This document shows positions 30,853-50,995 of a stretch of 50,995 nt of DNA, piece after piece. Positions within the stretch are counted from its first letter, which is position 1, and the number at the start of each line of letters is the position of its first letter. A program made the position numbers and the translations under genes. Below the pieces are notes generated by a model. It was not told the origin of the DNA. It ran no database searches and saw only the letters and a list, made by a program, of their open reading frames with translations. Source of the DNA: Elusimicrobiota bacterium. Its GTDB lineage: Bacteria; Elusimicrobiota; Elusimicrobia; UBA1565; UBA9628. The stretch lies in assembly GCA_016218575.1 (NCBI GenBank), contig JACRDN010000011.1, forward strand, positions 76,209 to 127,203, read 5' to 3'.

Positions 30853-33102
30853 TTAAGACGTTTTTTGTCCGGCCGAGGCGGGAAGGCGTATCGCGGTCAA
30901 ATCCTCGATGAGGCGCCCAGCCCAAAAATAGACGTTGTATTCCTTGAGGATGCGCCGCATGCTCAACATCCGGCGCGCCCGCTCCTCCGGATCCATCTCC
31001 AGAGCCGTTTTGATCGCTTGGGCCGTGCGCTCTGTGTCGTAGGGGTTGACGACCAAGGCGTCGCGCAGCTCGCGCGCGGCCCCCGTAAAATGGCTCAAGA
31101 TCAGCACGCCCTGCTCATCCTCCCTCGCCGCCACGAACTCCTTTGCCACCAGGTTCATTCCATCGTGGAGCGACGTCACCATGCACAGGTCGGCCGCGCG
31201 ATAGTAGGGGTCTATCTCCTTGTGGCTGTGGTGCTTCTTGAGAAGGACGATGGGCCGGTAGTCCTTGGCGGAAAACCGCCGGTTAATACGCTCGGCCTCC
31301 GCCTCCACATCGGCCTCCAAGTCCTGGTAGCTTTTGATATGGGTGCGGCTGGGCGCCCCTATCTCCACGAAGACGAACTCCCCTTGATAGACGGGATTCT
31401 TTTCGAGGAAGCGCTCGATGGCCCGGAAGCGCTCGATGATCCCCTTGGTGTAGTCCACGCGGTCCACCCCCACTCCCATCCAGCGCGCCTTGACGCCCAG
31501 CCCCTTGAGCAGGGTCTCTTTTCCAGGAGCTGCGCCCCGGGAAGGCACCGGCTCCGGGAGGGCGATGCTGATGGGGAAGGGTTTGACCGTCGTGACATGG
31601 CCCCGCCGATGCACGGCGAAGCGCTCCCATTCGATGCGGCACTCCAGGGCCCGGTCCACGGTCTCGAGGAAGTTGTTGCAATGGTACTGGATGTGGAACC
31701 CCACCAAATCCGCTCCCAGCATCCCATCCAGGATCTCCCTCTGCCAAGGGCATATCCCGAAAGCCTCGGGGTTCGGCCAGGGAATGTGCCAAAAAATGGC
31801 CACCCTGGCGTCCGGCCGGGCTTCCTTAATGAGGCGCGGCAAAAGCGCAAAATGATAGTCCTGGATCAGGACGCAGGGCTCTTGGATAGGGTCCAATTCC
31901 TCGAGCAGGGCGTCAGCGAACTTTCGGTTGACGTCCTGGTACTGCTTCCAATCCTCGGACCTGAAAATGGGCCTGGTGTGCGCGATATGGCAGAGCGGCC
32001 AAAGCCCCTCGTTGGAGAAGCCGTAATAATAGCCCTCCTCCTCCTCCTTGCTGAGCCACACGCGCTTCAAGGTGTACTTGGGCTCGTCCGGAGGCACCCG
32101 GACCCGGCCGCGCTCGTCCGCGGTCTCGCGGTCGGCGTCGCCTGCGCCCTGGCCGACCCAGGTGCCGCCGCAGGCCAGGAGGACGGGCTCGACCCCGGTC
32201 ACCAGGCCGCTGGCCGGGGTCACCACCTCCAAGCGCTTGCCCCGGCGCTCGTGCATGTATGGCTCGCGGTTGGCCACGACGAAAAGCGGGCGACCCTCGA
32301 GTTTGGCCCGGACATGCTCCTTCAAGCGCTCGGCCGTCCAAACGGATTGGACCTCCTGCCTCAGACGCGCCTCCTCTTCCGCCGCGGCGCGAGCCGCGGT
32401 CAGGCTTTGCGCCAAGTGGACGGCCTCCTTGGCCACGGGCTCCAGAAGCCCCGCCGGAGGGCTGAGGTCCCGCGGGGCTTGGCCGGTGCGCACCTGCTTC
32501 ATCCACTCCGCCAAATGATCTATGGGGGCCATGATATTCCAACGAATCACCCACAAGCTCACGAGGAGTATGACGAGGGCGTGAAAAAGCAATCTGAAGA
32601 AATTGTGCCTCCAGAGCAGCCGTATCTGGCTTTGGATGTAGGAGGTGTCGTGGATCAGGAGGAGGGAGCCCGCCGGGCCCCGCTCCGCCGCGAGAGGATA
32701 GACGAAAACCATCTCCTCGCCCCAGAAGCCCCTCCGGCTCACAGGAGGAGGCGGAGACTCCAGGCCCGCCGCGCGCTTAAGGAGGGACTCGAGGCTCTTC
32801 AAGCGCCTCTCCGTCCCCGCAGTGGCGGCCACGGTCCGGGCCTGGGCGTCGAATATCCCGGCCCCCAGGAGCCGCTCGCGCGCGGCGTTGCGGCGAAGGA
32901 CGCGGAGCATCTCCTTGGCGTCGGTTTGGATCAAGGCCGGCTCCAGGGACTCCTTGAGGCTCTCGGCCAGGGCCGCGCTCCTGCGCTGGAGCTCGGATCG
33001 GAGTTCCTTGGTTTCCTGCCTGGCCTGGAAATAAGTCGATAGCGCGGCGACCAAGGCCGCGGATAAGGACATGGACAGCACCAAGCGCGACGTGATCTTC
33101 AT
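30853..33102 (-). CDS. otsA: trehalose-6-phosphate synthase fused to a membrane sensor/HAMP module
   Basis: A 749-residue fusion. Residues 7-25 form TM1, 26-168 a periplasmic sensor-like domain, 169-187 TM2, about 188-240 a HAMP-like linker and coiled coil, and from 272 on a full GT20 OtsA domain. GT20 features are [35 protein letters not shown], the HIPWPNPE substrate motif, [10 protein letters not shown] and [13 protein letters not shown]. Free OtsA is normally soluble, at about 470 residues. This arrangement would place trehalose synthesis under a periplasmic signal (inference). I start at [10 protein letters not shown], since an upstream in-frame ATG adds 21 polar residues. It converges on treT with nine bases between. 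Confidence 0.85.
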
Positions 33103-33159
33103 GTTTGCCGCCAAGGAAGTATACCCAATTTCAGGCCCGGGGTTGTTTCCGGCCGCGAC

Positions 33160-33187
33160 TTGCAATCGAAATCATTCTTGCTATAAT
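33160..33187 (+). promoter_or_regulatory. cold-shock gene promoter
   Basis: TTGCAA, 16 bases, TATAAT with an upstream TGC (extended -10). The transcript start is expected near 33194, giving a leader of about 58 bases that contains the hairpin listed next. Confidence 0.7.
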
Positions 33188-38033: not shown

Positions 38034-38065
38034 AAAAAAGAGGCGGGGCCCTCACGGGCCCCGCC
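38034..38065 (-). terminator. intrinsic terminator of the 1217-residue protein gene
   Basis: Read on the minus strand: GGCGGGGCCC, loop GTGA, GGGCCCCGCC, then TC and a run of six T. A strong 10-pair stem, about 25 bases after the stop. Confidence 0.9.
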
Positions 38066-38089
38066 TGTGCTAATTATAAGTAAGGAACC

Positions 38090-41000
38090 TTACTGTTTGG
38101 CCAAGTCGTCGACCATTCCTTGGGCATCCTTACCGCTCTTTCCCGCGAAGTAGGCGAACGCCGCCGACGCGAGAAGGACCGCCGCCCTATACCCCAGACC
38201 GAATCCAGGCATGAGGAACGTGTAAGCAAGCAGCGTTCCAATTCCCGCGATGAGGTAGTGCGGGGTGAACATGCCGAGGATCAAGCCCACCGAAGAGGCC
38301 AGGATGACGTGGGCCAGCGCGGGGTAGGCGGAAGAAACCGCCACGGCGCCGACGATTCCCGCGATGCCGGTCATCGCCGCTTTCATGAAGCGCGAGCGAT
38401 CAATGGACTTCCGGTACAGGCCTCCCGAGAGGGCCGCGCTGAGGACGGTGGCCACCGCGGGCTGGCTCATCGGGTCTTGAGGGTTGGCGGTAAGGCCCGT
38501 CGCGTGGAACACCGTCGCGACGGCCGTGCTCACCATACCGGCCATGAAAGGCTGGCCGATGGCCAAGCCCAGGAGAGCTCCCATGGCCACGGGGGCCCAC
38601 ACAGCGCCCCAGAAGGCCGTCGGGACCGCGAGGAAGTAAGCTCCCACCACGGTCGCCATGATTCCGGCCGCTCCGAGAACGCCCATGAGCTTGCTGCGAT
38701 GGTCCGGGTTCGGGATGTAGCCCGCCAAGCCCCGGGACACGTAGGCGGCGGACAGCGCGGCCATCGTGATCAGGGTCGGGATGGATGCGGCAACGGCCGC
38801 TCCGACGGGCGTCGCGATGGCGGCGGCCACGCCGGCCACGGCCAGGCCGATGACGTCGGCCTTGCTGAACCGGACTTTGGCGTTGAGCATCTCATGCACC
38901 GGCCGAGCGGCGGCGCCGAAGAGGAAGCCCACGGAGATCGCAAGGATCGCCGCCACGGCTCCTCCGGTGGACATCGCCGCGACCGCGGCTCCGGTCAAGA
39001 CCATGCCGATGGTCCCGGTGTACATATCCCTGAGGTTGACGCTCTTGATGTCGCGCATCAGGATATGAGTCCCCAAGGCCATGGCGAAGGCCGCGTACCT
39101 GAGGGTGTGGGCGGCCGCGCCGATCGGAAGACCGACCAAGGCCACGCCGGCCACGGCGGCCAAGGCTCCGGCCACGGTCAGCTTGCCCTCCGAGGACAGG
39201 CCGAACATGGCGCCCAGTATCACCGGGGCGAGCTTGATCGCCAGAGGCGCGCCGATGCCGGTGGCCAAGGCGAAGGCCATGGCGATTCCGGCCATGCCGA
39301 TATTGCGCCCGTACTTCTCCTTGATGCCCTCGGGCAACTCGGCCACGGACAGGGAGGCAAGCGCGGTGACGTTGAGGCTGGTCACCACCGCGGCAGGCAC
39401 GCCCAAGACCGGCAGGACCGCCAGGGCCGCGACGGCGATGGCGACTCTGCCGCTCGCGTCTTTGTTGACCCCGGCGATGGAGCCGAGGACGACGCCGATG
39501 GCGAGACTCGACAACAGCGGGACGGGAACGTACAAGGAAGCCACCGCGGCCAAGATGCCGCCGATGGAGACGACGTTATTGATGAGTGAGTCGGAGACTC
39601 CCTGCTCTTTCTGAGCTTTGACGTACATGTGCGCCGCGTAAGCCGCCGTCGGAATGATGAGGAGCGGCAGGTTGGCGGTGGCGGCCAGGACCGTTCCGAC
39701 CAGGCCCACGGCTAGGCCGGCGGCCAAGGTCATGGACAAGGCCTTGCGGTCCGAGGCCTTGCGCTCATGGGCGAACTTGCTGACGGCGTAGCTGGCCAAG
39801 GTCGCGATGACCGTGGGGATGAGGTAGGCGGCCGCGCCGGCGGTGCCCACCGTCATGACGGCGCCGCTGCCGATGGCCAAGGTCACGACGCCGAGGACCG
39901 CGAGGGACGCGCCCGCGAGGGTCTCCCTGTTGATGACGTCATGGCTCGTGCCGATCTCGCCCCGGAAGTGCATGCGGCTGTACAAGGCCGCGGCGGCCGA
40001 CAGCCAAAGCAGAGGCATGGACGAGACGCCGGCCACCTGCGCGATGTTGACGAGCGCTATGCTCACGCCGTAGACGGGCGCCAGTTGAGGGGTGTCGGCA
40101 TTGAAATGCCCCAGGGCCAGGGAGATGAGCCAGGGCAGGAACAAGGACGCTCCCAAGGCGGTAGGACCACTCACGGCCAGGAACACGGTCCCGGCCACGG
40201 CGCCGGCCATTCCAACGTAGCCCAGCCAGGACTCAAGCTGCCCCTTGTCCGAGCCGTTCATGAGAAGAGCGGCCGAGAAGGTGCTGGCCGCCATGAGGAA
40301 GATGGCCTGCAGGGGCGCCGCAGGGCCGAACACGGATCCGGCCACGTACCAGAGCCAAGACACCATGGCTCCGGCCGCGACTCCGCCGATCACATGATTG
40401 TACTTGGCGGCGTGATAGCCCGCCAGCACGGAAAGAACCATGGGAACGGCCAGAGGATAGGACGCCGCCAAGGTCGCGGGAGCCGCGAAAGCCGCGATCC
40501 CGGTGAGAGCCAAGGCGAAGACGGCGACGAACCGGCGCGCCATGTCCTTTCTCTCGAAGCCCTGGGTGAAGAGCTCGGTGGAGACGGTGGCGATGCCCAA
40601 GGTGAGGGCCTGGGCCGCGAAGGCCACGGCCGTCGCCATGCCGGCGACGCTGAGGGCGCTCAGGGCCGCGAAGGAAACCACCGCGACCGCGGCGCCGACC
40701 TTGGAGTTCTGCGTGGAATAATACGCCAAGGCGCCCATGACGATGGGCAGGACCCCAAACTGCATCAAGGTCACGGCCGCGGCGGGAGCGGCGGCCGAGC
40801 CGAGGATCAGGTAACCCGCGGCGGCCACGCCGGCGCCGACCACTCCGACCAACTTCAAGGTGCTTGTGTTTTGGGGAACGTCGTCCGCGCTGTCCGGAGA
40901 GAGACCCAGCACGTTGATATTCCTGCTATGAACGATAGAACCGCCGATCAGCCCCGACAAGATCAAACCGACGCCGATGGTGATCGCTCCGCTCACGATG

Positions 41001-41743
41001 GATGCGATTCCGAGCCCGGCCAGCGTTAGGCCGAGGATAAGACCCAGGCTCTGCGGGCTTTGGCGACCGTTGGAGCCTCCGCCGAATCCATCGAAACCGC
41101 CGAAGTCAATCATCCCTCTGCGACCGGCCGCCCGGCCTCTGTAGCCCAGCAATCCCGATCTGGAGGAAGAGCCTTTGCCGGCGTTCACGACAGTGGCATC
41201 GTCAGCCTGTCCGGAGCGGACGGTTTTCAGGTCCCACTGCTTCTGGCCCTGCCCGACCGCCGCTTCAACCGAGCCCTGCTGGAGCGTCTCGGTCGCGAGT
41301 TCTTGGGTCGCCATGGCATCCGCCGCGGCCTGAACCCGAGCCTGCGCCTGAGGAGCGAATCCGCTCATGCCGGCCGAGGTCCTCTGAACTCTCTCAGTCC
41401 TTACTAAGGAGAGATTGGCTCTCGTTCGAGCATCCTGCCGAGTATCGGGAGCGCTCGTCTCGGCGCGGCCCCCGTTAATGACCCTTAAGGAAGGGGTCGC
41501 ATTGGGAGCTGTAGGGCCAGCCTGCGTGTCCAACTGCATGGCATTGGCTCCGATAATGTTGACACCCGCGTTGCCGCGGTTCCCGGTAACGACTCCGGGT
41601 CGCACGGCTCCGAGGTTGACGACTTTGCCCTGTCCCCTGACATTACCGCCCGCCATTGCCTGATAGCATCCCAGTCCGGGGGAGACCATCACGACAGCGG
41701 CGGCGACGGCAGTGGCCAGGAAACGGTTCAACCACTGTTTCAT
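38090..41743 (-). CDS. giant polytopic membrane protein of repeated helical hairpins (novel family?)
   Basis: A 1217-residue protein I cannot place. An N-terminal signal (about residues 1-31) precedes a soluble, low-complexity part to about residue 235. The rest is some 16-18 repeats of about 50-65 residues. Each has two hydrophobic helices split by a short proline-containing turn (PATLAASYPLAVP; ANLPLLIIP; AVPTAFWGAVWAP) and is separated from the next by a charged loop (FERKDMARRF; ERKASDRKA; DPDHRSK-like). This implies 32 or more TMs. It ends GKSGKDAQGMVDDLAKQ. The SD GGAGGCG lies before the ATG and a strong terminator follows, so it is monocistronic. No transporter motif, nucleotide site or conserved charged pore residue stands out. 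It could be a lineage-specific scaffold or channel. Confidence 0.75.
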   Translation of the reverse strand: MKQWLNRFLATAVAAAVVMVSPGLGCYQAMAGGNVRGQGKVVNLGAVRPGVVTGNRGNAGVNIIGANAMQLDTQAGPTAPNATPSLRVINGGRAETSAPDTRQDARTRANLSLVRTERVQRTSAGMSGFAPQAQARVQAAADAMATQELATETLQQGSVEAAVGQGQKQWDLKTVRSGQADDATVVNAGKGSSSRSGLLGYRGRAAGRRGMIDFGGFDGFGGGSNGRQSPQSLGLILGLTLAGLGIASIVSGAITIGVGLILSGLIGGSIVHSRNINVLGLSPDSADDVPQNTSTLKLVGVVGAGVAAAGYLILGSAAAPAAAVTLMQFGVLPIVMGALAYYSTQNSKVGAAVAVVSFAALSALSVAGMATAVAFAAQALTLGIATVSTELFTQGFERKDMARRFVAVFALALTGIAAFAAPATLAASYPLAVPMVLSVLAGYHAAKYNHVIGGVAAGAMVSWLWYVAGSVFGPAAPLQAIFLMAASTFSAALLMNGSDKGQLESWLGYVGMAGAVAGTVFLAVSGPTALGASLFLPWLISLALGHFNADTPQLAPVYGVSIALVNIAQVAGVSSMPLLWLSAAAALYSRMHFRGEIGTSHDVINRETLAGASLAVLGVVTLAIGSGAVMTVGTAGAAAYLIPTVIATLASYAVSKFAHERKASDRKALSMTLAAGLAVGLVGTVLAATANLPLLIIPTAAYAAHMYVKAQKEQGVSDSLINNVVSIGGILAAVASLYVPVPLLSSLAIGVVLGSIAGVNKDASGRVAIAVAALAVLPVLGVPAAVVTSLNVTALASLSVAELPEGIKEKYGRNIGMAGIAMAFALATGIGAPLAIKLAPVILGAMFGLSSEGKLTVAGALAAVAGVALVGLPIGAAAHTLRYAAFAMALGTHILMRDIKSVNLRDMYTGTIGMVLTGAAVAAMSTGGAVAAILAISVGFLFGAAARPVHEMLNAKVRFSKADVIGLAVAGVAAAIATPVGAAVAASIPTLITMAALSAAYVSRGLAGYIPNPDHRSKLMGVLGAAGIMATVVGAYFLAVPTAFWGAVWAPVAMGALLGLAIGQPFMAGMVSTAVATVFHATGLTANPQDPMSQPAVATVLSAALSGGLYRKSIDRSRFMKAAMTGIAGIVGAVAVSSAYPALAHVILASSVGLILGMFTPHYLIAGIGTLLAYTFLMPGFGLGYRAAVLLASAAFAYFAGKSGKDAQGMVDDLAKQ

Positions 41744-41998
41744 AATTCGCCTCCGGTGCGTAAATTACAGACCATGGGACCATAGTAGGAATAATGCGGA
41801 GAAAGCCCATGGGCCCTAGGGACCTTTCGCGTTCCCAATTTTGGCCTACAGTTTTATGGGACCTCTGTCCGGTGCCAGGCTTTTAGAAGTTTAAAGTTAT
41901 GGGGCCAATAGTCCTACCGAGACCTAGGCCCTCTGGCGTAAGGAAGACGGGCCTTATGGCCCCTGCCCCGAGGGAAGTCTGGGCTTACACTAAGAGAG
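41744..41998. promoter_or_regulatory. repeat-bearing intergenic leader
   Basis: A 255-bp non-coding gap, divergent between the giant gene and a small lipoprotein. It contains five short copies of ATGGG(A/G/C)CC or a close variant, starting at 41774, 41809, 41856, 41899 and 41956 (spacing 35-57 bases). Some are followed by TAG or CTAG. I see no other gene in it. Confidence 0.45.
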
Positions 41999-42239: not shown

Positions 42240-42635
42240 CTACTTCTGAGGTGGCTGGGTCTTGAGCACCCGATGCAGGATGGACAGGAGCTTCTTCTGG
42301 CTGATGGGCTTGACCAGAAACTCCTCGACATGCACCTGCTTTCTCATGTCCTGGACTTCCTTGGTATGGGCGTAGGCGGTCACGACAATGACCGGGGGAG
42401 GAGCGGGCGTGCGGCTCAGGTGGCTGATGACCTCAAAACCCGTGATCCCGGGCAGCATCAGGTCCAAGACCAAGGCGTCGGGAGAGGACTTGAGCTTTTC
42501 CAAGGCCTTTTCACCGGTCGCGGCCAGGTCTATCTTGAAGCCGTCCCGCCGGATCATGATCTCGAGCAGGTTCAGCATGGATTCGTCGTCGTCCACGATG
42601 AGCACGGTCTTGGTCTTGGGGTCTAGCAAGGACAT
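42240..42635 (-). CDS. single-domain response regulator (CheY-like)
   Basis: A 131-residue REC domain with no output domain. The acidic pocket is D15-D16, the phosphorylated Asp is D58 (LVLDLMLPG), the switch Thr is T86 (VVTAYAH) and the conserved Lys is K109 (FLVKPI). It should be phosphorylated by a histidine kinase and act by protein contact. It lies downstream of the CHASE2 cyclase on the same strand, separated by a 25-bp-arm inverted repeat. Its own -10 (TATACT, 42652-42647) sits 11 bases before the ATG. Confidence 0.93.
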   Translation of the reverse strand: MSLLDPKTKTVLIVDDDESMLNLLEIMIRRDGFKIDLAATGEKALEKLKSSPDALVLDLMLPGITGFEVISHLSRTPAPPPVIVVTAYAHTKEVQDMRKQVHVEEFLVKPISQKKLLSILHRVLKTQPPQK

Positions 42636-42665
42636 AAAGCGCTTATAGTATACAATTGAATTTAG

Positions 42666-42723
42666 GAATTCGGTGACAGTTACTTAATTCTTTCGGGGGA
42701 ATTAAGTAACTGTCACCGAATTC
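42666..42723. repeat. perfect 25-bp-arm inverted repeat (REP-like)
   Basis: The left arm (42666-42690) and right arm (42699-42723) match perfectly around an 8-base loop, TTTCGGGG. The arms contain GGTGACAGTTACTTAATT, which looks like the REP/RAYT-associated repeats found in many genomes. There is no T-tract, so it is not a standard terminator. Confidence 0.85.
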
Positions 42724-42725
42724 AT

Positions 42726-44948
42726 TCATTTACTAAGGGCCGTGAAGGTGCCGTCCCAATCCGGGCCGGGGGGAACGGCCTCGAAGGCCTTGAGGCGCTC
42801 CTCGTAGAGATCGTAAAGCGTCGGAAACGACCAGGGCCGGGAGCGACATATGGACAGAAGGGCCCGGGCCTTTTGCCACTGCCGGGAGCGGTAGGCGGCG
42901 AGCATCTCGTCGTGGCGCTTCTGCCAGGCCGAGAACTCCTCCTGGCGGGCCATGGAGTCGTCGCCCAGGAGAGCGTAGATGCGCACGGGCACGCTTTTCC
43001 CCTTCACACGGATAAGGTCCAGCTCCAAGACCGCATAGTCCGGAACCCGCTCGCGGGTATTGGGGCCTATGACGATGCCAACCCCATAATTCTTGGATTG
43101 GCCCTCGAGGCGCGAGGCCAGATTCACCTCATCGCCCAGGGCTGAATAGTCGAAGCGCTGGTCAGAGCCCATGTTCCCCACGCAGCAGGCGCCGGTATTG
43201 AGTCCAAGACCTATCTGAACGGGAATAAAAGGCCGTCCCTCGGCCTTGCTCGCCGCCTCCCACTCGGTATTGAGTTCGGCCAGCTTGTCCTGCATCGCGA
43301 GCGCCGCCTGACAGGCGTGCCGGGCGTGCTCGGGATCGTCCAGGGGGGCGTTCCAGAAAGCCATGATGCAGTCGCCGATGTACTTGTCTATGGTGCCCTT
43401 TCTCTCCAGTATGATTTCCGTCATGGGGGTGAAGAAAGCGTTGATGAGGTGAGTCAAACCCTGCGGGTCGAGCTTTTCCGAAATGGTGGTAAATCCCCGT
43501 ATGTCGCAAAAAAGCAAGGTCATGTCGCGCAGTTCCCCACCCAGCTTGAGCTTGTCGGGGTTCTTGGCCAGCTCCTCGATCAGGGCCGGGGACATATAGC
43601 GGCTGAAGGCCCCCTTGATCTGGCGCCGCTCCGCCTCGGTCTTCAAGTAGCCTATTAAGGAAGAAGACATATAGATGAGAAGCACGGTCAAGCAGGGGAA
43701 TACCGGATCCACCAGGTACATCCAGGAGGAGAAGGCATGCCAGGAAAAGGCCAAAGCTCCGGTCAGCCCCGCCACGGTCAAGCTCACGCTGGAAAGCGCC
43801 CCGCAGAGAGGAAGGAGCAGGATCAAAGCTAGGCCCATCACCAGCATGTAGAGAAGCTCCGCGCCCGGGGCCCAATCCGGGCGCTGGAGAAAGCGCCCCA
43901 AGAGGACCTGCTCAACCACGTTGGCGTGGACCTCGACCCCGGGGGCGGCGGGGCTGAGGGGTGTCACGCGCAAGTCCTTGAGCCCAGAGGCGGAGGTTCC
44001 CAGGAAGATAATGCAGCCGGCCAACTGCTCGGGGTCGAAATTTTTATTGAATATCCGCCACAGGGCAATGGTGCGCTCGGGAGGCGGCAAGGTGTAGTAC
44101 ACCCAGAAGCGGCCCTTGGCGTCCGTGGGGATCTTATAGGCCCCGATCTTGATCCGGCTGATCCCAGTGTGCTGGCCGAAGCTCGACTCGCCGCTCGCCC
44201 CGGAGGATTTGACGGCGTAGCCCGCGCCCCCTTGGGCCACGCGCAGGGCCTCGGCGGCGAGCGAGGGATAAAGGGATTTCCCCAAGCCGAAGAGGAGAGG
44301 GGGCCTGCGGATGATGCCGTCCGATTCGGGGAGGAACCCGAAATTGCCGTTTCCCGCGGCGCGTTTTTCCAAAATCGGGAGATTGGCGACCGCGCCCTCG
44401 TAGGCGTCCACGTAGGCCATGGGATTGTCCCCGGCGTAGGAGAATGAAGCTTTCACGACGGGTGCCGCACCATTCTTCTGGCCGGTCAAGACAAAGCCAG
44501 TCACGACCCGGCTTCGGCCTATGGCCTGGGCCAGGAGGGCGTCATGGTCGGGCAGGGTCTTGAGCTTGGCCTTAACCGCTTCCAGCTCCCTGGTATGGGG
44601 CCAAAGCGAGGCAACCTCCGCCGGAGAAGTACGGTCTGGCTCGGAAAAAACGATGTCGAAAGCCGTGACCGCGGCGCCCAGCTCGTCCAATCTATCTATG
44701 ACGCGGGCCACCTGGCTTCTCGGCCAAGGCCACTGGCCGAGACGGGAGAGGGTCTCGTCATCTATGTCGAGGATGCGCACAGGGGCCGCCTCGTAGGGGC
44801 GGGGGCGCAGGACTTGGAACATGTCGAAGGCCTTATGCTGGAAGGTCTCCACCCAAGCCCAGGGGCTCAGCTTGAGCCAGACCACCAGGAAGAGGAGGGC
44901 CAGGGGAATCAAGAGCTGGGCCCCCCGCCTCCAGAGCGCGCGCGCCAT
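42726..44948 (-). CDS. CHASE2-domain class III adenylate cyclase
   Basis: A 740-residue membrane protein. TM1 (about 10-25) is followed by a CHASE2 sensor domain (about 35-340) with ILDIDDETLSRLGQWPWPR, then two or three TMs (about 350-430), then a class III nucleotide cyclase domain (about 480-650). The two metal Asp are in FCDIRGFTTIS and YIGDCIMAFW, the adenine-binding Lys in GTIDKYIGD, and FDYSALGDEVNLASRLEG carries the Asp and the Asn/Arg of the transition state. All are present, so it should make cAMP. The ATG at 44948 was chosen because the upstream extension lies in the divergent promoter. It is divergent from the Slam-like gene. Confidence 0.9.
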   Translation of the reverse strand: MARALWRRGAQLLIPLALLFLVVWLKLSPWAWVETFQHKAFDMFQVLRPRPYEAAPVRILDIDDETLSRLGQWPWPRSQVARVIDRLDELGAAVTAFDIVFSEPDRTSPAEVASLWPHTRELEAVKAKLKTLPDHDALLAQAIGRSRVVTGFVLTGQKNGAAPVVKASFSYAGDNPMAYVDAYEGAVANLPILEKRAAGNGNFGFLPESDGIIRRPPLLFGLGKSLYPSLAAEALRVAQGGAGYAVKSSGASGESSFGQHTGISRIKIGAYKIPTDAKGRFWVYYTLPPPERTIALWRIFNKNFDPEQLAGCIIFLGTSASGLKDLRVTPLSPAAPGVEVHANVVEQVLLGRFLQRPDWAPGAELLYMLVMGLALILLLPLCGALSSVSLTVAGLTGALAFSWHAFSSWMYLVDPVFPCLTVLLIYMSSSLIGYLKTEAERRQIKGAFSRYMSPALIEELAKNPDKLKLGGELRDMTLLFCDIRGFTTISEKLDPQGLTHLINAFFTPMTEIILERKGTIDKYIGDCIMAFWNAPLDDPEHARHACQAALAMQDKLAELNTEWEAASKAEGRPFIPVQIGLGLNTGACCVGNMGSDQRFDYSALGDEVNLASRLEGQSKNYGVGIVIGPNTRERVPDYAVLELDLIRVKGKSVPVRIYALLGDDSMARQEEFSAWQKRHDEMLAAYRSRQWQKARALLSICRSRPWSFPTLYDLYEERLKAFEAVPPGPDWDGTFTALSK

Positions 44949-44988
44949 CAACTGGATTTTCCGTGATTTGCCCGGAATAATCAAGCTG

Positions 44989-45018
44989 TTGACTTTCCCG
45001 GGGCTATTGTGCCAAGAT
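44989..45018 (+). promoter_or_regulatory. promoter candidate for the Slam-like gene
   Basis: TTGACT, 18 bases, CAAGAT. The start site would fall near 45025, leaving a short leader without a clear Shine-Dalgarno sequence. Confidence 0.45.
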
Positions 45019-45038
45019 GAACTTCCCGCGACAATCAT

Positions 45039-46448
45039 ATGAAACGATTTAAACTCAGACTTACGGCAATTCCCTTGGCACTGCTGGGCTTGGCGGCATC
45101 CCTCCAGGCGCAGAACTACGAGCAAGAGATACGCAAGCCCGGCAGCGAGATCGATATTCAATCCAAGATCACCAATATCGGCGAGGAAGCCCAGCGCCGC
45201 AAGATCCTGGAGGGCGAGAAGGACGTCTCCTACGATGAGGTGCTGGCCGACCCCGATAATTTGGATTTGAACTACCGCTATGCCCGGACCCAGGTCCGGC
45301 AGGGGAATCTCAAGGGCGCCTCGGCGACTTTGGAGCGCATCCTGCTGATAGACCCGAACCTCTCCAAGGTGCGCCTGGTCTACGCGATCGTCCTCTTCCG
45401 CCTTCAGGACATGGTCGAGGCCGAGCGGGAGCTCAACGCCCTCAAGGGCGTGGCCGACCTTCCGGAAAATCTGCGCCGGGAAACCGACAAATACTTAACG
45501 GCGGTCGAGAAGTCCTACAAGCGCACCGTGCTCTCCGGCCGCGTAAGCGCCGGCGTCCAGTACGACACCAACCGCAACTCTGCCTCCTCCTCCGGACAGA
45601 GGCTCCTCACCGACGTCCCGATCACCTTAACCGGAACCTCCCTCAAGCGCGCGGACGTGAGCAAGATATTCATAGGCAACCTCGAGCTGCGCCGGGACTT
45701 GGCAAGAAACTCCGGCGACCAACTTTTCGCGAGCTACACCTATTACCGGGCCGACCAAACAGCGGTCAAGAGCCTCAACCTACAGGCCCACTCCGCCCAG
45801 GCGGGCGGGGTTTGGAAAGCGCGCAGCTGGGAGCTGACCCCGAGCCTCTCCTACGATCTGGTGCTCCTGGCCCAGACCACCTACCTGCGCAACCGCGGCG
45901 GGGGCCTGCGCGCCCTCTACAAGCCCAGCCCGCGCTCGAGCTTCTTCGTGGAGGCCAAGGACGTCTACCAGGACTTCGCCCGCACCGCCGACGTCCCCAC
46001 GGCTCCCGAGAGAAACGGCATCCAGTTCGACGCCACGGCCGGGGCGGAGTGGCAGGCCACCGGCTCCATGCGCCTGAGCTTCAACTACAACCGCAGCGTC
46101 AAGCACGCCTCGCGCCGCTACAACGCCTACAACCGAGATTCGGTGACGGTCGGAAACGCCCTGTTCCTGGGCAAGGGGCTGTTCCTTATTCCCAGCGCGA
46201 CCTACAATTACGATCAATACCTGCAAAACGACCCCAGCGTGAGCACCCTCAAGCGCATCGACAAGACCGTGAAGCTCGACGTCACCGCGGGCGCCTCGCT
46301 CGGCCAGCTGCATCCCAAGCTCGAGAGCCTGCTCTGGACGGTGAGCTACGAATACTACGACTCCACCCGGTCCAACCTGCGCAACTACGCCTACATCAAC
46401 CAGAAGATCTCGACCTTGCTCACCTACCGGTGGGACGTGGGCTTCTGA
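45039..46448 (+). CDS. Slam-like TPR plus outer-membrane beta-barrel protein
   Basis: A 469-residue protein with a signal peptide (cleavage after about residue 25), a TPR-like helical domain (about 60-150, with NLKGASATLERILLIDPN) and a C-terminal beta-barrel (about 165-469) of alternating strands ending YRWDVGF. The final phenylalanine is the standard outer-membrane barrel signal. TPR plus a roughly 14-strand barrel is the architecture of Slam (DUF560), the type XI secretion translocon that moves lipoproteins or soluble proteins to the cell surface. The assignment is by layout, not by homology search. The downstream gene could be its cargo. Confidence 0.7.
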   Translation: MKRFKLRLTAIPLALLGLAASLQAQNYEQEIRKPGSEIDIQSKITNIGEEAQRRKILEGEKDVSYDEVLADPDNLDLNYRYARTQVRQGNLKGASATLERILLIDPNLSKVRLVYAIVLFRLQDMVEAERELNALKGVADLPENLRRETDKYLTAVEKSYKRTVLSGRVSAGVQYDTNRNSASSSGQRLLTDVPITLTGTSLKRADVSKIFIGNLELRRDLARNSGDQLFASYTYYRADQTAVKSLNLQAHSAQAGGVWKARSWELTPSLSYDLVLLAQTTYLRNRGGGLRALYKPSPRSSFFVEAKDVYQDFARTADVPTAPERNGIQFDATAGAEWQATGSMRLSFNYNRSVKHASRRYNAYNRDSVTVGNALFLGKGLFLIPSATYNYDQYLQNDPSVSTLKRIDKTVKLDVTAGASLGQLHPKLESLLWTVSYEYYDSTRSNLRNYAYINQKISTLLTYRWDVGF

Positions 46449-49627: not shown

Positions 49628-49697
49628 GCCTCCGCGGTGACATGCAGTGACCCGAGCTGCCTTGATTCGCCGCATTCCCAGCCCTATCCTAAGCGCA

Positions 49698-50995
49698 ATG
49701 AGAAAAATTCAGATCTCTCCAGCCGTGCTCTCCCACAACGGCTCGGACGGCCTCGGACCGGAGGAAACCGCCGAGCTTCTGCACGCCCTCAAAACCGTGC
49801 GCAAGGGGAATTTCTCGGCGCGCCTGCCCAGAGCGCGCGGAGGGATCTGCGCGGACATCGCGGAAATCTTCAACGACATCGCGGAAATGAACCAAAAAAT
49901 GGCGCAGGAGCTCGAGCGCATCAGCCGCGTGGTGGGCAAGGAAGGCAAGCTCGCCCAGCGCGCCTCCTTGGGCCCCATCACCGGCTCCTGGGCGACCTGC
50001 GTGGACTCCGTCAACTCACTCATCGGCGACTTGGTCCAGCCTACCACGGAGGTCGCCCGCGTGATCGGAGCCGTGGCCAAGGGGGATCTCTCGCAAACCA
50101 TGCCTCTCGAGATCGAGGGCCGCCCGGTCAAGGGCGCCTTCCTGCAAATCGCCAACACCGTTAACACCATGGTGGGACAGCTTTCCTCCTTCGCCTCCGA
50201 GGTGACCCGGGTCGCCCGCGAGGTCGGAACCGAGGGGAAGCTCGGCGGACAGGCCGTGGTCAAAGGCGTGGCCGGGGTCTGGAAGGATCTCACCGACAAC
50301 GTCAACTCCATGGCCTCCAACCTCACCAACCAGGTCCGTAACATCGCCGAGGTCACGACCGCGGTCGCCAAGGGAGACCTCTCACGCAAGATCACGGTCG
50401 AGGTCAAAGGAGAGATTCTAGCCCTGAAGGACACCATCAACACCATGGTGGACCAGTTGAACTCATTCGCCTCGGAGGTCACTCGGGTCGCCCGCGAGGT
50501 CGGCACCGAGGGCAATTTGGGCGGACAGGCCGTGGTCAAAGGCGTGGCCGGGGTCTGGAAGGATCTCACCGACAACGTCAACTCCATGGCCTCCAACCTC
50601 ACCAACCAGGTCCGCAACATCGCCGAGGTCACGACCGCGGTCGCCAACGGCGACCTCTCCCATAAGATCACGGTGGAGGTCAAGGGCGAGATATTGGCCT
50701 TGAAGGACACCATCAACACCATGGTGGATCAGTTGAACGCCTTCGCCTCCGAGGTCACCCGGGTCGCCCGCGAGGTCGGCACCGAGGGAAAGCTTGGCGG
50801 CCAGGCCGTGGTGAAAGGGGTGGCCGGCATCTGGGAGGACCTCACCAACAACGTCAACTCCATGGCCAATAACCTGACCACCCAGGTGCGCAACATCGCC
50901 GAGGTGACGGCGGCGGTCGCCAACGGCGACCTCTCCCGCAAGATCACGGTGGAGGTAAAAGGCGAGATTCTGGCCTTGAAGGACACCATCAACAC
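49698..50995 (+). CDS. multi-HAMP sensor protein (hybrid kinase type), partial
   Basis: The open frame runs 432 codons to the window edge. After a 25-residue start ([20 protein letters not shown]) and a first degenerate HAMP unit come near-identical HAMP units of exactly 92 codons (276 bp), repeated at 50191, 50467 and 50743. Each has [19 protein letters not shown], then [20 protein letters not shown], then [16 protein letters not shown]. This is the poly-HAMP head of group III hybrid histidine kinases (Nik1-like), where HAMP relays control kinase output. There is no TM, so it should be cytosolic. The kinase part lies outside the window. Confidence 0.88.

What the first reader, a model, noticed from the sequence alone, without database searches (positions are those of the whole stretch)
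38090..41743. A 1217-residue membrane protein made of about 17 tandem helical hairpins
Helix pairs of about 50-65 residues repeat from residue 235 to the end, each split by a short proline turn and separated by charged loops, giving 32 or more TMs after a secreted low-complexity head. I recognise no transporter or enzyme motif. Very long repeat-built polytopic proteins of this type are not a family I know.
Basis: seen in the sequence. Interest (0 to 1): 0.8.

Follow-up and report, generated by a model that had tools for sequence, protein, structure and literature searches.

The report
Orphan protein with 38 membrane helices
An uncultured Elusimicrobiota bacterium encodes a real but family-less protein that crosses the membrane about 38 times as a row of 19 helix pairs; only its N-terminal tag has detectable relatives, and its closest known analogue in build is the large lipid-protecting protein Arc3A (DUF2339).

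Summary
The gene is real but lies on the minus strand (41743 to 38090). It has gene-like codon positions, an SD site and its own terminator. Residues 231-1204 form 19 hydrophobic hairpins (about 38 TMs by hydropathy) at ~52-residue spacing (p = 0.005). Turns within hairpins hold 1 K/R, 1 D/E and 17 Pro; loops between hairpins hold 40 K/R and 25 D/E. The units are not detectably homologous to one another: leave-one-out HMM, Gibbs and HHalign tests do not clearly beat shuffles. "Repeat-built" is therefore an architecture, not a shown duplication. The TM part has no credible match in Pfam, NCBIfam, PADLOC, PHROGs, PDB, plasmids, viral contigs or 341 Elusimicrobiota genomes. Only the first ~32 residues have relatives: a signal-like element (SPGxxCYxAxA), essentially restricted to the order, that heads large fusion proteins. 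Very large hairpin-array proteins are already known: DUF2339/Arc3A (35 TMs, protects against phospholipase toxins). This one shares the rhythm but fails the DUF2339 sequence test. TM cores are almost free of charge and rich in Ala/Gly, which argues against a proton-coupled transporter or enzyme. Best guess: a passive membrane-embedded scaffold or lipid-sequestering matrix, with head and loops facing the cytoplasm. The mechanism is inferred.

The parts
41750..41754 (-). Shine-Dalgarno-like GGAGG, 7-11 nt upstream of the ATG
38090..41743 (-). Gene for the 1217-aa protein (P0001), probably monocistronic: own terminator and ~500-nt gap to the upstream response-regulator gene
41648..41743 (-). Residues 1-32: signal-like element MKQWLNRFLATAVAAAVVMVSPGLGCYQAMAG; order-restricted family with conserved SPGxxCYxAxA
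41054..41647 (-). Residues 33-230: low-complexity, net-positive head (linker), no domain found
38132..41053 (-). Residues 231-1204: array of 19 hydrophobic hairpins (~38 TMs); hairpin starts at residues 231, 296, 346, 401, 449, 501, 553, 608, 664, 717, 762, 811, 853, 905, 961, 1016, 1065, 1117, 1163
38090..38131 (-). Residues 1205-1217 and stop: short charged C-terminal tail, predicted on the same side as the head
38041..38066 (-). Intrinsic terminator (11-bp GC-rich stem followed by a T run) 23 nt after the stop codon
37479..37549 (-). tRNA-Thr(TGT) downstream; near RmuC in several relatives, while this gene is absent beside it in palsa_1176 (context only)

Best explanation
P0001 is a functional, lineage-specific (orphan) giant polytopic inner-membrane protein. 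Its N-terminal 32 residues belong to an order-restricted membrane-targeting element shared with a few other large proteins of the same genome. A ~200-aa disordered head and all charged loops lie on the cytoplasmic face; 19 tightly packed Ala/Gly-rich hairpins cross the membrane. The array most likely acts passively, as a membrane-embedded scaffold or lipid-binding/sequestering matrix, similar in kind to the proposal made for DUF2339/Arc3A, rather than as an ion-coupled transporter or enzyme. Shown: coding status, the hairpin rhythm, charge segregation, charge-poor TM cores, shared N-terminal element, no detectable homologue of the array. Inferred: membrane insertion, topology, packing and the passive scaffold/lipid role.
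For: Coding signals. Rhythm significant (p = 0.005). K/R 40 in loops versus 1 in turns. TM cores carry few charges: 0.13 per TM versus 0.59-0.90 in DUF2339 and 0.27-0.58 in the MFS-like and GT39-like proteins compared; 4 of 570 residues in the 15-aa cores. GxxxG/A pairs 29 versus 19.7 +/- 3.8 in shuffles, fitting close helix packing. DUF2339 relatives show a similar rhythm, 53-57, 108-114 and 213-227 residues. Arc3A has 35 TMs, no enzyme residues, and its TMs are proposed to sequester lysophospholipids (PMC8926400). N-terminal element shared with large fusion proteins.
Against: No homologue, so no conservation evidence. Structure model useless (mean pLDDT 40, pTM 0.28). No sequence relation to DUF2339, so the functional analogy rests on architecture alone. 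Own genome has no DUF2339, but nothing links P0001 to lipid damage. No informative operon partner: the upstream response regulator and CHASE2 cyclase are separated by ~500 nt.
Confidence: 0.35

Rival explanations
1. A highly diverged member of DUF2339/Arc3A that has lost recognisable sequence similarity and protects the membrane against phospholipase attack or lysolipids.
For: Similar hydropathy rhythm; similar TM number (35 in Arc3A, PMC8926400); DUF2339 is common in the same bacterial family (16 of 42 genomes) but absent from this genome.
Against: No Pfam hit at E<=10; HHalign against family DUF2339 proteins gives P=0.24, score 20.2, inside the shuffled range 15-26; different N-terminus (signal-like element versus coiled coil or zinc ribbon); several-fold fewer charges in TM cores.
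Confidence: 0.15
2. An uncharacterised transporter or channel: several fused copies of a small hairpin-based carrier.
For: Other proteins with the same N-terminal element include ABC-transporter and, by inspection, MFS-like fusions.
Against: Few buried charged or polar residues; no transporter family hit; 38 TMs in ~975 aa, more compact than the MFS proteins compared; no internal duplication.
Confidence: 0.2
3. A weakly constrained, nearly neutral hydrophobic array (young or decaying gene) with no specific function beyond filling the membrane.
For: Orphan in one genome; absent at the equivalent locus in palsa_1176; extreme Ala/Gly bias; units without conserved residues.
Against: 3.65-kb frame intact with normal codon bias, SD site and terminator; sharp charge segregation between turns and loops.
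Confidence: 0.2
4. On origin rather than function: a new family of truly tandem-duplicated hairpins whose units have diverged beyond detection.
For: Regular ~52-aa rhythm; Gibbs alignment slightly above controls (24 versus 10 +/- 10 or lower); autocorrelation at offset 53 z = 3.6 among offsets.
Against: Leave-one-out HMMs, local segment scores and HHalign self-comparison do not beat shuffles.
Confidence: 0.3

Closest known systems
DUF2339 (PF10101), P. aeruginosa Arc3A
   Same: Massive hairpin-rich polytopic protein (35 TMs in Arc3A), ~53-57-residue hydropathy rhythm, no catalytic residues recognised
   Different: No sequence match by HMM or HHalign; signal-like N-terminus instead of coiled coil/zinc ribbon; far fewer charges and mostly fewer aromatics in TM cores
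Order-restricted Elusimicrobiota proteins headed by the SPGxxCYxAxA element (M48, M50, ABC, ATP-grasp, MFS-like and Bat fusions)
   Same: Same N-terminal element, then a low-complexity linker, then domains that are often membrane-bound
   Different: Those with Pfam hits carry recognisable enzymes or transporters; P0001 carries only the hairpin array, and its TM part matches none of them
Major Facilitator Superfamily
   Same: Alpha-helical polytopic proteins of the inner membrane
   Different: No Pfam hit; ~26 residues per TM by hairpin count and charge-poor cores; 38 TMs and no internal duplication detected

Membership tests
DUF2339 / Arc3A | Match to the PF10101 profile | tested here: not met
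   No hit at E<=10; PF10101 search of the own genome: no match
DUF2339 / Arc3A | Profile similarity to related-genome DUF2339 proteins | tested here: not met
   HHalign score 20.2, shuffled controls 15-26
DUF2339 / Arc3A | Large number of TMs in ~53-residue hairpins | tested here: met
   Autocorrelation peaks 52/102/211 versus 53-57/108-114/213-227
DUF2339 / Arc3A | Same fold | tested here: inconclusive
   P0001 model pLDDT 40; DUF2339 model pLDDT 61, PDB matches all E>0.01
DUF2339 / Arc3A | Protection against phospholipase/lysolipids | not testable with these tools
   needs experiment
Sequence-repeat protein | Units more alike than shuffled controls | tested here: not met
SPGxxCYxAxA-headed protein class | N-terminal element matching the profile | tested here: met
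   E 3.1e-17 (P0001 is one of the seed sequences) and matches to heads of other proteins at E about 1e-4
SPGxxCYxAxA-headed protein class | Low-complexity linker followed by a large protein, often with TMs | tested here: met
Known transporter families | Profile match | tested here: not met
   Pfam, NCBIfam, PDB sequences: none

The most novel reading that the evidence does not exclude
P0001 belongs to a previously undescribed class of giant Elusimicrobiota proteins headed by a new membrane-targeting element that, unlike a normal signal peptide, leaves the following head on the cytoplasmic side. Within that class P0001 is a pure 38-helix membrane matrix with no catalytic domain, a new way to build a membrane-integral scaffold or lipid sink.
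Probability: 0.15. Interest if true: 0.75.

Novelty: new variant of a known kind. Interest (0 to 1): 0.45.

Why it matters
Massive polytopic proteins without pores or active sites are poorly understood; the one studied example (Arc3A) protects cells against phospholipase toxins by an unknown mechanism. An unrelated protein with the same build would suggest that dense hairpin arrays are a functional solution reached more than once, and would test whether the array itself, rather than a conserved motif, does the work. The shared N-terminal element gives a handle on a set of giant fusion proteins in a little-studied phylum.

Tried and rejected
Plus-strand reading: stops and wrong codon bias. Homologues of the array: genome contigs, 295 and 341 phylum genomes (in these at most two candidates per genome were scored), 44 family genomes with all candidates scored, viral contigs, plasmids, PDB sequences: nothing credible; remaining TM-region hits had E 0.007-0.45 over 35-150 residues, several in short or stop-containing frames. 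Tandem duplication: DNA repeats weak, protein tests negative. Membership in DUF2339: rejected on sequence. AlphaFold without an alignment: pLDDT 40, not used. DUF2339 comparator model: pLDDT 61, best PDB matches are alpha-solenoids but E>0.01, not used as evidence. Conserved gene neighbourhood: in palsa_1176 (G258) the interval from tRNA-Thr to the CHASE2 cyclase holds no such gene.

Full report
What is there. The finding's coordinates hold one ORF of 1217 codons on the minus strand; the plus strand at these coordinates is not open. It is a real gene: GC at the three codon positions is 0.635/0.522/0.832, as in neighbouring genes; synonymous codon use fits only this frame; GGAGG lies 7 nt before the ATG; an 11-bp GC-rich hairpin with a T run follows the stop codon. 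The ~500-nt gap to the upstream response-regulator gene (42240-42635) suggests a transcription unit of its own.

Anatomy. Residues 1-32 look like a signal peptide, 33-230 are low-complexity, and 231-1204 are 19 hydrophobic hairpins. Counting TMs by hydropathy gives 30 (greedy window), 35 (dynamic programming) or 38 (two cores per hairpin). No dedicated topology predictor was available. Hydropathy autocorrelation has peaks at 52, 102 and 211 residues; shuffling the blocks gives a peak as high near 52 in 0.5% of trials. Charges are segregated: 155 turn residues hold one K/R and one D/E but 17 prolines, whereas 241 loop residues hold 40 K/R and 25 D/E. By the positive-inside rule the loops, the head and the C-terminus should all be cytoplasmic (inference).

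Are the units repeats? Not demonstrably. Mean pairwise identity is 16%. Leave-one-out HMMs score held-out units at 2.35 bits, no better than window-shuffled controls at 1.1-3.7. The best ungapped internal matches equal shuffled controls. A Gibbs search gives 24 bits versus 10 +/- 10 for the tightest control and lower values for looser ones, suggestive at most. HHalign self-comparison is empty. The regularity is therefore architectural; common ancestry of the units is possible but unshown.

Relatives. Nothing in Pfam, NCBIfam, PADLOC or PHROGs, PDB sequences, plasmids, viral contigs or genome contigs. Searches of 295 and 341 phylum genomes and 44 family genomes give no credible match to the array. 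The phylum searches scored at most two candidates per genome, so a distant relative could have been missed there; the family search scored all candidates. No other genome of its genus appeared among the family genomes searched. In palsa_1176 the interval from tRNA-Thr to the CHASE2 cyclase lacks the gene. The first 32 residues, however, match the N-termini of other large proteins. A profile of eight such termini hits 38 of 42 family genomes, 261 hits at E<=0.05 by my sum of the table, generally at the head of large ORFs. A 28-sequence profile at E<=1e-4 finds the element in 7 of 120 phylum genomes: 5 of the 6 family genomes sampled, one of the same order and one of the same class. Conserved columns are P and G (invariant), then Y, A and A in SPGxxCYxAxA.

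What the element heads. By Pfam: an ABC exporter, an M48 peptidase, M50 plus subtilase, M50 plus ClpB-type AAA, ATP-grasp ligases, and VWA/TPR/DUF58 fusions resembling a fused Bat operon, one of these in this genome. By inspection only, further M50-like, MFS-like and HAD domains. In L079 an ATP-grasp domain follows the element with no TM between, and Bat fusions carry a second signal-peptide-like segment further on (L087 read, L200). Both suggest that the head stays cytoplasmic, as P0001's own charge pattern suggests. This is inference and needs a topology experiment.

What it works like. The nearest known kind is DUF2339. P. aeruginosa Arc3A has 35 predicted TMs, lacks residues indicative of enzymatic activity, and prevents lysophospholipid accumulation during phospholipase attack; its authors suggest the TMs sequester lysophospholipids or interfere with phospholipases (PMC8926400). 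DUF2339 proteins occur in 16 of 42 genomes of this bacterial family but not in this genome. They share the rhythm. Membership fails: no profile hit, HHalign within the shuffled range, a different N-terminus, and TM cores with 0.59-0.90 charges each versus 0.13 here. The lack of buried charge, the Ala/Gly content and the excess of GxxxG/A pairs (29 versus 19.7 +/- 3.8) favour close packing over a proton-coupled pore. I therefore favour a passive scaffold or lipid-binding matrix (0.35), with transporter (0.2) and weakly constrained gene (0.2) as main rivals.

Structure. AlphaFold on residues 225-1217 alone is not usable (pLDDT 40.2, pTM 0.28). A DUF2339 comparator from this clade reached pLDDT 61; its best PDB matches are alpha-solenoids with E>0.01 and are not used as evidence.

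Verdict. A genuine, orphan, massive polytopic protein; new as a sequence, but a variant of an already known kind of build. Interest is moderate: the array is striking, yet without homologues or a model its function cannot be pinned down here.

Noticed in passing
window 41648-41743; L041-L069, L070-L089, L196-L200: An essentially order-restricted N-terminal element (SPGxxCYxAxA) heads large, often fused proteins, commonly several per genome; the domains behind it (ATP-grasp, ABC, MFS-like) suggest that what follows it stays in the cytoplasm, unlike an ordinary signal peptide.
   Followed up: partly
L087 (own genome G000:C7): A 2753-aa protein with VWA domains, TPRs and DUF58 in one chain, resembling a whole Bat/aerotolerance operon fused into one polypeptide, with a second signal-peptide-like segment about 110 residues in.
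   Followed up: partly
L196 (G240:C67): M50 membrane protease fused to ClpB-type double AAA domains behind the same N-terminal element.
   Followed up: partly
L073 (G085:C40): M48 peptidase fused behind the same element to several Ala/Gly-rich TM hairpins that look like those of P0001 but show no sequence similarity.
   Followed up: partly
window 50155-50995, ORF 49647-50993 (+): 276-nt tandem repeat, three copies at 89% matches, in an ORF that runs off the window; looks like repeated HAMP-type units of a sensor protein (by eye, not tested).
   Followed up: no
window 30853-33165 (-): Glycosyltransferase family 20 (trehalose-phosphate synthase) domain behind an N-terminal part with apparent TM segments, like a membrane sensor module.
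   Followed up: no
window 42240-46448: Response regulator, CHASE2-guanylate cyclase and a divergent TPR protein adjacent; CHASE2 cyclases are numerous in this family.
   Followed up: no
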